NCBI GenBank assembly: GCA_035653615.1
Contig: DASRBN010000027.1
Location: 1-64,000 of the forward strand
From: Ktedonobacteraceae bacterium
GTDB taxonomy: Bacteria; Chloroflexota; Ktedonobacteria; Ktedonobacterales; Ktedonobacteraceae
Length of the DNA: 64,000 nt
Direction of reading: 5' to 3'
A program made the position numbers and the translations under genes. A model generated the notes under the pieces. It saw nothing but the letters and a program-made list of their open reading frames with translations. It was not told the origin of the DNA and searched no databases. Of this stretch, positions 16,014 to 18,915 are shown in pieces (within the stretch, counting starts at the first letter, position 1; every line of letters begins with the position of its first letter).

Positions 16014-16658
16014 ATGAGTATCGTAAGCACTATTCATCCCAAAGATTCGACCCATATTCCTGAGCCGCCGATTGCGAAATTCCTCTTTGCGGATACGCGC
16101 ATGGCCTGGTTCTGGCTGATCGTCCGTGTGTATGTTGGCTATCAGTGGTTGACCGCCGGGCTGGAGAAGTTGACCGGGCGCGACTTCACGATTGGAGCCT
16201 CGTTCAGTAAAGTAGTCAGCACGCCCTGGGTCTTTAATGCCCACGCGGGAGCCGGTCTGAAAGGCTTTATTATGGGAGCGATTGCCCAGGCGAATGGATC
16301 GTATGCGCCGGTGCAAGGCTGGTATGCCTCGTTCCTGCAGCATTTCGTCCTGCCAAATGTGGGTGTCTTCGCCTACGTCGTCACCTTCGGGGAAATCCTG
16401 GTGGGACTTGGTTTGATCTTCGGCGTATTGACCGGTATAGCGGCCTTCTTCGGAGTATTCATGAACCTGAACTTCATGCTGGCAGGTGCGGTGAGCATTA
16501 ATCCGATCATCGGCACGCTGGCCTTGTTCATCGTACTGGCCTGGAGAGTGGCGGGCTACTACGGCGTCGATAGTCTTCTGCTCCCACTGCTGGGCACTCC
16601 CTGGACGGGCAGGTTGGCCAAAGGTGGCAAAGCAGTTCCAAAAGAGAAGGCAGCCTGA
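16014..16658 (+). CDS. DoxX-family membrane protein
   Basis: A 214-residue protein with four to five hydrophobic segments. An N-terminal cytoplasmic stretch of about 25 residues is followed by WFWLIVRVYVGYQWLTAG, the signature first helix of DoxX/DoxD proteins. The longer loop after it and the last two helices fit the thiosulfate:quinone oxidoreductase-like subgroup. A strong ribosome-binding site (AAAGGAGC) lies 7-8 nt upstream. Its likely role is a quinone-linked redox membrane component, but no partner subunit is adjacent and the electron donor cannot be told. A good terminator follows, so it is monocistronic. Confidence 0.82.
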   Translation: MSIVSTIHPKDSTHIPEPPIAKFLFADTRMAWFWLIVRVYVGYQWLTAGLEKLTGRDFTIGASFSKVVSTPWVFNAHAGAGLKGFIMGAIAQANGSYAPVQGWYASFLQHFVLPNVGVFAYVVTFGEILVGLGLIFGVLTGIAAFFGVFMNLNFMLAGAVSINPIIGTLALFIVLAWRVAGYYGVDSLLLPLLGTPWTGRLAKGGKAVPKEKAA

Positions 16659-16711
16659 CAGTAGGGTAGTTGAAGTAACCGGGGAGTATAACGCTATCTC
16701 GAATTGAGGCG

Positions 16712-16757
16712 GGTGGCCGGAAAGCTTTCTTCCGCTTTCCGGCCACCTGGTTTTTTC
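16712..16757 (+). terminator. Rho-independent terminator after the DoxX gene
   Basis: A 14-bp perfect stem (GGTGGCCGGAAAGC at 16712-16725, complement at 16734-16747) with an 8-nt loop, followed by TGGTTTTTTC. Confidence 0.9.
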
Positions 16758-16859
16758 TATGGGAGAGAGGTAAGTATCCTTCTGCTCATTTGACACGCTC
16801 AACAATGAGAGCGCACAATAGAAAGTGTTCTATCAAAGAGAAAAGAGGCAACAAACAGG

Positions 16860-17309
16860 TTGAGCTGGCACATTCCCAACGCCGTCATGCTGGCCGCCGA
16901 CAAGGTGACCCAGTTTCTCTACTGGTCCACCGGCGGGCGGTTGGGCGAAAAGCAGTTAAGCTATTCGATGCTCCTGCTGCACACCATTGGACGCAAAACC
17001 GGCAAGCGGCGCACGCATACACTTTTATATTTTCGCGATGGAGAAAACCTGGTTATCTGCGCCTCCAATAATGGCTCCCCGCAGCTTCCTGCCTGGTATC
17101 TGAATTTACAGGCACACCCGCGCGTCTGGATTCAACATGGGCGCACCAGGCGCGAGGTGATCGCGGAAACGGTTGGTGTGGAGGAACGGCAACGCCTCTG
17201 GCAGCGACTATTGCAAATCCGTCCTCAATATGCCGACTATCAAAAGTATACCTCGCGTGTATTTCCCATCGTTATTCTCAAGCCTCTTCCTGGAGAAGAG
17301 CATGGTTGA
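16860..17309 (+). CDS. F420-type nitroreductase/quinone reductase (Ddn-like)
   Basis: A 149-residue protein of the deazaflavin-dependent nitroreductase (DUF385) family, which reduce quinones or other substrates with F420H2. Family features are the helix at the N-terminus, LLLHTIGRKTGKRRTHTLLY (about 37-56, containing the conserved GRKTG/R motif that contacts the cofactor phosphate), then the PAWYLNLQAHP motif and the C-terminal strand VFPIVILKP. TTG 16860 is chosen because no ATG lies upstream before an in-frame stop and the first ATG (16887) would cut the first helix. It lies 24 bp upstream of the ERG2-like gene and is probably co-transcribed with it. Some relatives bind FAD, heme or no flavin instead. 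Confidence 0.82.
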   Translation: MSWHIPNAVMLAADKVTQFLYWSTGGRLGEKQLSYSMLLLHTIGRKTGKRRTHTLLYFRDGENLVICASNNGSPQLPAWYLNLQAHPRVWIQHGRTRREVIAETVGVEERQRLWQRLLQIRPQYADYQKYTSRVFPIVILKPLPGEEHG

Positions 17310-17333
17310 TCAGATCAAGGAGAAACGTTGCGT

Positions 17334-17969
17334 ATGGCCAACTATGTATTCGATCCGCAAGTCATTCACGAAATCAGCCTCAAACATCTGGGGAAGCCGC
17401 TGGAGCAGATGTTTGCGGATATTAGCGCCGAATTATCGGAACGCTATCCAGGCATGATAGATGATTCTAAGCCCTGGATCTTCAATAACGCGGGCGGCGT
17501 GATGCTCGAAATGAAGCTGCTGTACGCCTCGACGAAAGAATACATCATGCTCTGGGGCACACCTATTGGAAGCGAGGGACATACCGGGCGTCACCTGGTC
17601 GAATTTTATGATACCGTGCTCGATGGCGAGGCCTGGTACTATACCGAGGGCCAGTTTACGCGCGATGTCTATACGCCGGGGGATCATATCTTTGTCGGCA
17701 AGGGGCAAAGCGCCGGAATGCATTATCCAGATCACGTGTGGATGATTGAATACGCTCGTGGCCCCCTGCCGACGCTGCTCCCATTCGGCCTTGCCGATGC
17801 CCTGACCAGCACGCACGATTTCAAAACTGCCATCCAGACGGTCGTCATCTACTTTTCGCTTACCGGTCGCCAGATGTCAAGAGGCCAGAAGATGGCGCTC
17901 GGCTCGCTTGCCGCCGCCGTCCTGCTCTTATGGAGTGTCAGAGGCAAAAGAGGGCGGCGGCGGGGATAA
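17334..17969 (+). CDS. ERG2/sigma-1-receptor-like protein
   Basis: A 211-residue protein that closely resembles the eukaryotic ERG2 (sterol C8-C7 isomerase)/sigma-1 receptor family. Matching stretches are YVFDPQVIHEI near the start, IFNNAGGVM, the LLYAS...EYIMLWGTPIG core, GSEGHTGRH, FYDTVLDG, VYTPGD, WMIEYARGPLP and FGLADALTSTHDF. The two acidic ligand-pocket residues of the human receptor (D126 and E172) correspond to D93 and E139 here. A C-terminal membrane helix (about 187-202) with a basic tail replaces the N-terminal anchor of the eukaryotic proteins. ATG 17334 and TTG 17328 both fit AAGGAG. It follows an F420-type reductase. The reaction (isomerase, or ligand binding only) is not known. 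Confidence 0.85.
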   Translation: MANYVFDPQVIHEISLKHLGKPLEQMFADISAELSERYPGMIDDSKPWIFNNAGGVMLEMKLLYASTKEYIMLWGTPIGSEGHTGRHLVEFYDTVLDGEAWYYTEGQFTRDVYTPGDHIFVGKGQSAGMHYPDHVWMIEYARGPLPTLLPFGLADALTSTHDFKTAIQTVVIYFSLTGRQMSRGQKMALGSLAAAVLLLWSVRGKRGRRRG

Positions 17970-17970
17970 G

Positions 17971-18915
17971 TTACCTGTGGTAATAGGGCGACATGCGCAA
18001 AATCCACCAGCGGGCGGCGGGACGTACCATGCGCGTGAGATAGCGTTTATAGCCGACGATGCGCGTCAATTGCCGCATGATGTCGTCGAACGAATAACGC
18101 TGGTAGTGCAGCAGGCGCTGGCTCTCTTCTGTATCAAGCCAGTCCGTGCAATAGGGTTTGTGGCCAAAGGCGCTCTCCGGCAACATGCCGATGCCCATCA
18201 TCTCCAGCATGCGCCCCAGGTAGTCGCGGTAGAGCATCTGGCAGCTGGGGCCACCGCCGATGAGCAGCGTTTTGCCCCAGGCCTCTTCGCAACGGATGCC
18301 GTTGGCGATTGCCATGCCCGCATCGTAGGTGTGAACGACCTCGAAGCGTGTGACAAGAGGAATTTCGAACATGATAGGATGCGGGCTGCGCAGGCTCAGC
18401 GGCGGGACATCGGCAAAACGGAAGATACTCCACTCGAGGCCAGATGTCTTGACCATCTCCTCACAGGCAATTTTGTGTGTCGAGTAGTGGTCCGTCGCCT
18501 GAACCGGGTCGGTTATTCTGCGTGGCGGGGGTTGCTCCTGCGTATAGCCGAAGACATCGAAACTGGATGCGAAGAAAAACCTGGGCGGTCTGGATAAGCT
18601 GCGAGCAGCGACGAGCAGGTTGCGCGTTCCGCCAATATTGATCTGATGCGCGAGCTCAGGATGTTCCTCGCTGTATGGCGGCAGCATGTAGGCCAGGTGA
18701 ATGATCGCGTCTCGATCCTGCACTGCCTTCGACACGTCCGCCGGTTGCCGGATGTCACCCTGTATCAATTCTATCCTGCCCGCGAAACGCCTGGCAGTGC
18801 GTGCATGAGCCTTGCGCCTGGATACGAAGCAACGCACTTCGTGTCCCTGGCGCAATAACTCATGCAGCGTACTCATCCCGATATTGCCAAAAGCGCCGGT
18901 CAGTAAAATCTTCAT
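17971..18915 (-). CDS. NAD(P)-dependent epimerase/dehydratase (extended SDR)
   Basis: A 314-residue extended short-chain dehydrogenase. The dinucleotide-binding loop TGAFGNIG is at 6-13, DAIIHLAY is the strand contacting the adenine side, and the catalytic pair is Y144-x3-K148 with an upstream serine in FFFASSFD. The C-terminal substrate domain differs from the common sugar epimerases, so the substrate could be a nucleotide sugar, a hydroxysteroid-like lipid or another alcohol. It converges on the ERG2-like gene, the stop codons being separated by one base, so transcription of each runs into the other. No terminator lies between them. Confidence 0.83.
   Translation of the reverse strand: MKILLTGAFGNIGMSTLHELLRQGHEVRCFVSRRKAHARTARRFAGRIELIQGDIRQPADVSKAVQDRDAIIHLAYMLPPYSEEHPELAHQINIGGTRNLLVAARSLSRPPRFFFASSFDVFGYTQEQPPPRRITDPVQATDHYSTHKIACEEMVKTSGLEWSIFRFADVPPLSLRSPHPIMFEIPLVTRFEVVHTYDAGMAIANGIRCEEAWGKTLLIGGGPSCQMLYRDYLGRMLEMMGIGMLPESAFGHKPYCTDWLDTEESQRLLHYQRYSFDDIMRQLTRIVGYKRYLTRMVRPAARWWILRMSPYYHR

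What the first reader, a model, noticed from the sequence alone, without database searches (positions are those of the whole stretch)
17334..17969. Bacterial homologue of ERG2/sigma-1 receptor
Seen: nearly the whole family core, including the two acidic pocket residues (D93, E139), with a C-terminal membrane anchor in place of the N-terminal one of eukaryotes. Known: ERG2 is a sterol isomerase and the sigma-1 receptor binds varied amines; I know few bacterial members. Inference: a sterol- or hopanoid-like isomerase, or a ligand-binding protein of unknown role.
Basis: partly seen in the sequence, partly recalled or inferred. Interest (0 to 1): 0.72.

Follow-up and report, generated by a model that had tools for sequence, protein, structure and literature searches.

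The report
Orphan bacterial ERG2/sigma-1-receptor homologue with F420 reductase
A soil bacterium that has none of the tested sterol-making genes carries a close structural relative of the yeast sterol isomerase ERG2 and the human sigma-1 receptor, placed next to (and in a relative fused to) an F420-dependent reductase, which suggests the pair rearranges and then reduces a double bond in a lipid that is not a home-made sterol.

Summary
Window 17334-17969(+) is a full-length ERG2_Sigma1R (PF04622) protein: 191 bits, AlphaFold pLDDT 93, structural Z 28.5 to human sigma-1 receptor over 185 residues. D93 and E139 align with the receptor's D126 and E172. It is a real gene under purifying selection. 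The genome is a Ktedonobacterium (Chloroflexota). Only 4 of 47 genomes of the class have the gene. Bacterial ERG2 is not rare: a scan gave 38 loci in Myxococcota, Chloroflexota, Spirochaetota and Asgard archaea. In Myxococcota it mostly goes with sterol synthesis (oxidosqualene cyclase in 12 of 17 genomes). This genome has only a squalene-hopene cyclase, and no squalene epoxidase or sterol reductase was found, so it is not a step in de novo sterol synthesis. New here is the partner: a Ddn-type F420H2-dependent reductase 24 bp upstream. In a related MAG the two form one 389-residue frame. In 47 genomes the reductase's four best matches lie in exactly the four ERG2-bearing ones. Best reading: a double-bond isomerase coupled to an F420H2 ene-reductase, acting on a hopanoid, terpenoid or scavenged sterol. 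Substrate and activity are inferred. A non-catalytic receptor role is not excluded. New variant of a known kind.

The parts
17334..17969 (+). ERG2_Sigma1R-family protein, 211 aa (P0001)
   Evidence: AlphaFold2 pLDDT 93.4; Z 28.5 to 5hk1
17538..17543 (+). codons of E69 and Y70; E69 invariant in 44/44 rows, Y70 in 43/44 (align with the receptor's E102 and Y103)
   Evidence: column counts
17610..17612 (+). codon of D93 (GAT), aligns with sigma-1 receptor D126
17748..17750 (+). codon of E139 (GAA), aligns with sigma-1 receptor E172, invariant in 44/44 rows
17880..17945 (+). extra C-terminal helix 183-204 with basic tail, possible membrane attachment
   Evidence: secondary structure; hydropathy maximum 1.36
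17317..17322 (+). AAGGAG ribosome-binding-site-like sequence before the ERG2 start
   Evidence: read directly
16860..17309 (+). F420H2-dependent (Ddn/FDOR-A-type) reductase, 149 aa, probable first gene of the same operon, 24 bp before ERG2
   Evidence: PF04075 121 bits; TIGR00026; Ddn structures E 5e-24
16790..16819 (+). sigma-70-like promoter site (10 of 12 matches) before the F420 reductase; at chance frequency in the region
16710..16749 (+). terminator-like hairpin (16-pair stem, T tract) that would separate the DoxX gene from the F420 reductase-ERG2 unit
17971..18915 (-). convergent NAD-dependent epimerase / 3beta-HSD-like SDR, 314 aa, conserved neighbour in two further ERG2-bearing relatives

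Best explanation
The protein is a genuine ERG2/sigma-1-receptor-fold protein that most likely works as a lipid double-bond isomerase (inferred). An acid pair (D93, E139) in the closed cupin barrel would protonate one carbon of an alkene and let a neighbouring proton leave, shifting the double bond. It probably works with the Ddn-type F420H2-dependent reductase of the same operon: the isomerase moves a C=C into a position that the ene-reductase can hydrogenate with F420H2. The convergent 3beta-HSD-like SDR may make the activating ketone. The substrate is probably a polycyclic or prenyl lipid that is not a home-made sterol: a hopanoid or other terpenoid, or a sterol taken from plants or fungi. 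Shown: family, fold, pocket residues, gene order and fusion frame, co-occurrence of partners, no detected genes for de novo sterol synthesis. Inferred: catalysis, order of steps, substrate.
For: Fold and pocket. F420 reductase 24 bp upstream on the same strand, with a strong terminator-like hairpin before it and none between the two genes. In L012, a MAG of another genus of the family, reductase and ERG2 form one uninterrupted 389-aa frame with both Pfam domains (115 and 197 bits; junction read). Of 47 Ktedonobacterial genomes the four with the best reductase matches (340, 236, 180, 147 bits) are the four ERG2-bearing genomes, in four genera and three families. The SDR orthologue is in 4 of 4 ERG2-bearing and 13 of 43 other genomes, Fisher p 0.013 without phylogenetic correction, and is adjacent in three (L001, L004, L027). 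In L027 (another family of the order) reductase, SDR, ERG2 and a Rieske protein with a 3-ketosteroid-9alpha-hydroxylase domain lie together. All four genomes encode the F420 synthesis gene cofD. FDOR-A enzymes reduce activated C=C bonds by hydride transfer (PMC5449967, PMC8498797). In other lineages ERG2 sits beside a sterol-desaturase-type protein (L025) and an ERG4/ERG24 sterol reductase (L035), consistent with double-bond chemistry.
Against: No activity or substrate is shown here, and none was found in the papers searched, for a bacterial ERG2 outside sterol makers. Two of the four ERG2-bearing Ktedonobacteria show no squalene-hopene cyclase, so a hopanoid cannot be the common substrate unless those incomplete genomes (88 and 91%) miss it. 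The Rieske gene is linked in only one genome and no KshA-type domain was found in this genome. In G084 the reductase homologue lies on another contig. The fifth-best reductase hit (145 bits, G300) is nearly as good as the fourth and its genome, 79% complete, has no ERG2. FDOR-A enzymes are also known as menaquinone reductases (PMC8498797), so the partner need not act on the isomerase product. The fusion rests on a single MAG contig.
Confidence: 0.45

Rival explanations
1. A sterol C-8 isomerase in the strict sense, used on sterols scavenged from fungi or plants (or their breakdown intermediates) rather than on home-made sterols.
For: Same family and pocket as ERG2; linked KshA-like Rieske oxygenase and 3beta-HSD-like SDR in L027; Myxococcota members go with sterol synthesis; a spirochaete (G421) has ERG2 next to an ERG24-type reductase with no convincing cyclase.
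Against: No KshA-type oxygenase found in this genome and none of the sterol synthesis genes tested. Yeast ERG2 (sequence recalled from memory) and L025 carry a DDYF acid motif in place of D93, whereas this protein has the receptor-type position.
Confidence: 0.22
2. A non-catalytic, sigma-1-receptor-like protein that binds amphiphilic amines, sterols or sphingoid-like lipids at the membrane and regulates or scaffolds the neighbouring enzymes.
For: Closest solved structures are receptors, some bound to steroids (progesterone, DHEA sulfate); receptor-type acid positions and W136; possible membrane helix; vertebrate receptors are themselves family members that, by general knowledge, lack isomerase activity.
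Against: Adjacent to, and once fused with, a redox enzyme; homologues in other bacteria sit in sterol-synthesis contexts.
Confidence: 0.22
3. A recently acquired or drifting gene with no settled role; the neighbours are chance.
For: Patchy presence, 4 of 47 genomes in the class and 5 of 400 in a phylum sample.
Against: Purifying selection (dN/dS about 0.07), the four Ktedonobacterial copies form one supported group (100/100), repeated linkage with the same partners across three families.
Confidence: 0.06

Closest known systems
Vertebrate sigma-1 receptor (SIGMAR1; 5hk1, 7w2b, 8w4b)
   Same: Whole fold (Z 28.5, 185 residues, rmsd 2.0), about 35% identity, pocket acids D126/E172 plus E102 and Y103
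   Different: No N-terminal transmembrane helix; an extra C-terminal helix with basic tail; bacterial operon with an F420 reductase
Fungal ERG2 sterol C8-C7 isomerase
   Same: Same Pfam family; same glycine-rich core and invariant glutamate
   Different: Yeast ERG2 (recalled sequence) has its acids at a shifted place (DDYF instead of YDT); this genome has no oxidosqualene cyclase, squalene epoxidase or ERG24 match
ERG2 homologues of sterol-making Myxococcota (e.g. Plesiocystis pacifica, L020) and ERG2 in sponge-symbiont steroid clusters (PMC9531527)
   Same: The Myxococcota proteins are mostly 43-48% identical, with the same pocket positions and the same start of the protein at YxFDP
   Different: Those Myxococcota genomes mostly carry an oxidosqualene cyclase with VSDCTAE motif and an ERG24 homologue; no C-terminal helix; no F420 reductase partner seen
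Ddn / FDOR-A F420H2-dependent reductases (partner gene)
   Same: PF04075, Ddn structures at E 5e-24, shared GRKTG and PxYxDYQ stretches
   Different: Linked and once fused to an ERG2 domain; no such pairing found in the papers searched

Membership tests
ERG2_Sigma1R (PF04622) | Profile score over the curated cut-off along nearly the whole model | tested here: met
   191 bits against 21, model 21-206 of 210
ERG2_Sigma1R (PF04622) | Helix pair, closed cupin-like barrel, two C-terminal helices as in 5hk1 | tested here: met
   pLDDT 93.4, Foldseek E 1e-21, Z 28.5 over 185 residues
ERG2_Sigma1R (PF04622) | Two pocket acids equivalent to receptor D126 and E172 | tested here: met
   D93 and E139 by alignment
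Sigma-1 receptor proper | N-terminal transmembrane helix before the barrel | tested here: not met
   Protein starts at MANYVFDP; N-terminal hydropathy 0.19
Sigma-1 receptor proper | Binding of sigma ligands such as pentazocine or haloperidol | not testable with these tools
   needs binding assay
Sterol C8-C7 isomerase (ERG2 enzyme) | Isomerase activity or rescue of yeast erg2 | not testable with these tools
   needs assay
Sterol C8-C7 isomerase (ERG2 enzyme) | Genome encodes sterol synthesis (oxidosqualene cyclase, squalene epoxidase, ERG24) | tested here: not met
   only a hopene-type cyclase DIDDTA; no PF08491 or PF01222 match; genome 95% complete
FDOR-A / Ddn F420H2-dependent reductase (partner 16860-17309) | PF04075 match and sequence motifs shared with Ddn | tested here: met
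   121 bits, Ddn alignment
FDOR-A / Ddn F420H2-dependent reductase (partner 16860-17309) | Organism has F420 synthesis genes | tested here: met
   cofD TIGR01819 373 bits in this genome; other F420 synthesis genes not searched

The most novel reading that the evidence does not exclude
A lipid pathway not found in the literature searched, in bacteria without sterol synthesis: an ERG2-fold isomerase physically coupled to an F420H2-dependent ene-reductase (operon here, one polypeptide in a relative), with a 3beta-HSD-like dehydrogenase and sometimes a Rieske oxygenase, remodelling hopanoids, other terpenoids or scavenged sterols.
Probability: 0.35. Interest if true: 0.65.

Novelty: new variant of a known kind. 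Interest (0 to 1): 0.5.

Why it matters
The sigma-1 receptor is a drug target whose ancestral function is debated, and ERG2 is a fungicide target. Prokaryotic members without sterol synthesis show that the fold is not tied to home-made sterols and may have begun as a more general lipid enzyme or binder. The F420 reductase operon and fusion name a concrete partner reaction, which makes the role directly testable. Members without the N-terminal helix could also be easier to express and crystallise.

Tried and rejected
Viral contigs: no relative found. NCBIfam has no model for the protein. The DoxX gene at 16014-16658 was considered as an operon member and set aside because a 16-pair terminator-like hairpin follows it. 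Steroid degradation in this genome was tested only through KshA (no match). The SDR alone is not specific to ERG2: it occurs in 13 ERG2-less genomes with other neighbours. A eukaryotic origin by transfer was considered: Ktedonobacteria plus the three eukaryotic rows as one group is rejected (p-AU 0.04) and eukaryotes plus Asgard rejected (p-AU 0.0001), but only three eukaryotic sequences were available, one recalled from memory (it scores 316 bits on PF04622), branches are long and the tree is unrooted, so I draw no direction. One key paper on bacterial steroid genes (PMC8237579) is not held. A first automatic ORF choice failed in GC-rich loci and was replaced by frame-aware picking.

Full report
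Observation. An ORF of 211 aa starts at ATG 17334 and ends at 17969 on the + strand, with AAGGAG at 17317-17322 as a possible ribosome-binding site. It matches PF04622 ERG2_Sigma1R over nearly the whole model at 191 bits and the solved Xenopus and human sigma-1 receptors at E about 1e-36. Against the copy of a genome in another family of the same order (L004) it is 82% identical with dN 0.11 and dS 1.7, so it is under purifying selection. The AlphaFold2 model built on 39 aligned sequences has mean pLDDT 93.4. It aligns with 5hk1 at Z 28.5 over 185 residues, rmsd 2.0; the best unrelated cupin reaches Z 11. D93 and E139 occupy the columns of receptor D126 and E172; E69, G75, G82, G85, G98, E139 and D162 are invariant in all 44 rows examined.

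Anchor. The model has the receptor's two C-terminal helices (145-160, 163-178) plus an extra helix 183-204 and a basic tail. There is no N-terminal membrane helix. The extra helix is only moderately hydrophobic (1.36 over 19 residues), while two Lokiarchaeal and one spirochaete homologue have clear C-terminal membrane segments (2.5-2.8) and most Myxococcota end right after the second helix.

Who has it. The window lies in a 6.6-Mb genome, 95% complete, whose nearest named relative in the scan is a Ktedonobacteraceae MAG. The family occurs in 5 of 400 genomes of a phylum sample and in 4 of 47 of the class, in four genera and three families. A scan of genome contigs gave 38 loci in Myxococcota, Chloroflexota, Spirochaetota, a Dadabacterium and Asgard archaea. 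Viral contigs gave none. The four Ktedonobacterial proteins group with support 100/100.

Sterols. Thirty-three of these ERG2-bearing genomes were searched for cyclases and for ERG24 and the cyclases typed by motif. By my count from those tables, 12 of 17 Myxococcota genomes carry a VSDCTAE oxidosqualene cyclase and 12 of 17 a strong ERG24-family hit. The Chloroflexota and Asgard genomes show no strong cyclase hit of the oxidosqualene type and no strong ERG24 hit. The window's own genome has one squalene-hopene cyclase with DIDDTA, no squalene epoxidase match and no ERG24 match. So within this family there is a sterol-making group and an orphan group, and the window protein belongs to the latter.

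Partners. Twenty-four bases upstream on the same strand is a 149-aa F420H2-dependent reductase of the Ddn type (PF04075 121 bits; Ddn E 5e-24). A strong terminator-like hairpin at 16710-16749 and a promoter-like site at 16790-16819 (the latter at chance frequency) precede it, so the two genes probably form one unit. In the Ktedonobacteraceae MAG contig L012 the same two domains lie in one 389-aa frame without a stop. Searching the reductase in all 47 class genomes, the four best genomes are exactly the four with ERG2 (340, 236, 180 and 147 bits), followed closely by an ERG2-less genome of the same genus as the fourth (145 bits). A convergent SDR with 3beta-HSD similarity is adjacent here and in L004 and next to ERG2 in L027. 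Its orthologue is in 4 of 4 ERG2-bearing and 13 of 43 other genomes (p 0.013 without phylogenetic correction). In L027 the order is F420 reductase, SDR, ERG2 and then a Rieske protein with a KshA C-terminal domain cut by the contig end. All four genomes have cofD.

Mechanism. FDOR-A enzymes hydrogenate activated alkenes by hydride transfer from F420H2, and also menaquinone (PMC5449967, PMC8498797). ERG2 isomerises a nuclear double bond by protonation and deprotonation (general knowledge). The simplest model that uses operon, fusion and co-occurrence is isomerisation that prepares a C=C for F420H2-dependent reduction in a polycyclic or prenyl lipid, perhaps after oxidation by the SDR. The substrate is open: two of the four genomes have a hopene cyclase, two do not, and the Rieske gene in one hints at steroid-like compounds. 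A sigma-receptor-like binding role remains possible because the acid positions are receptor-like and the nearest structures bind steroids without, by general knowledge, converting them.

Known or new. The family, and bacterial ERG2 in sterol clusters (PMC9531527), are known. I found no report of an F420 reductase partner or fusion, or of Asgard members, in the papers searched, which is a limited library. I rate it a new variant of a known kind, interest 0.5.

Noticed in passing
L025:5121-6666 (Myxococcales MAG, JAEUKE010000147.1): A sterol-desaturase-type FA_hydroxylase gene lies 4 bp before an ERG2 homologue with the fungal DDYF motif that groups with yeast ERG2 (99/96; yeast sequence recalled from memory). 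The genome also has an oxidosqualene cyclase and ERG24: a possible bacterial ERG3-ERG2 operon.
   Followed up: partly
L038-L040, L042, L047, L049 (Heimdall-, Loki- and Prometheoarchaeal contigs): Asgard archaea carry ERG2/sigma-1-receptor homologues without strong sterol-cyclase hits; Lokiarchaeal copies have a clear C-terminal membrane segment. They do not form one group with the eukaryotic rows (AU test, few eukaryotes).
   Followed up: partly
L035:5875-8062 (Spirochaetes MAG Prado232): ERG2 homologue directly followed by an ERG4/ERG24 sterol reductase (428 bits) in a genome without a convincing cyclase: possible sterol scavenger.
   Followed up: partly
L006:1059-2058, L041:5519-6549, L048:3636-4668 (Chloroflexota): A SnoaL/NTF2-like gene sits about 25 bp before ERG2 in three loci; the bacterial 8,14-sterol reductase is also an NTF2-fold protein (PMC13277303), so this may be another isomerase-reductase pair.
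   Followed up: no
L043:1015-3201 and L044: In two Dehalococcoidia contigs the ERG2 homologue is close to genes that look by eye like acyl-CoA metabolism (hotdog-type protein, AMP-ligase end).
   Followed up: no
L045:5995-6552 (Myxococcales MAG): A divergent ERG2 homologue groups with the vertebrate sigma-1 receptors (96/92), in a genome with oxidosqualene cyclase and ERG24; long branches, so unsure.
   Followed up: no
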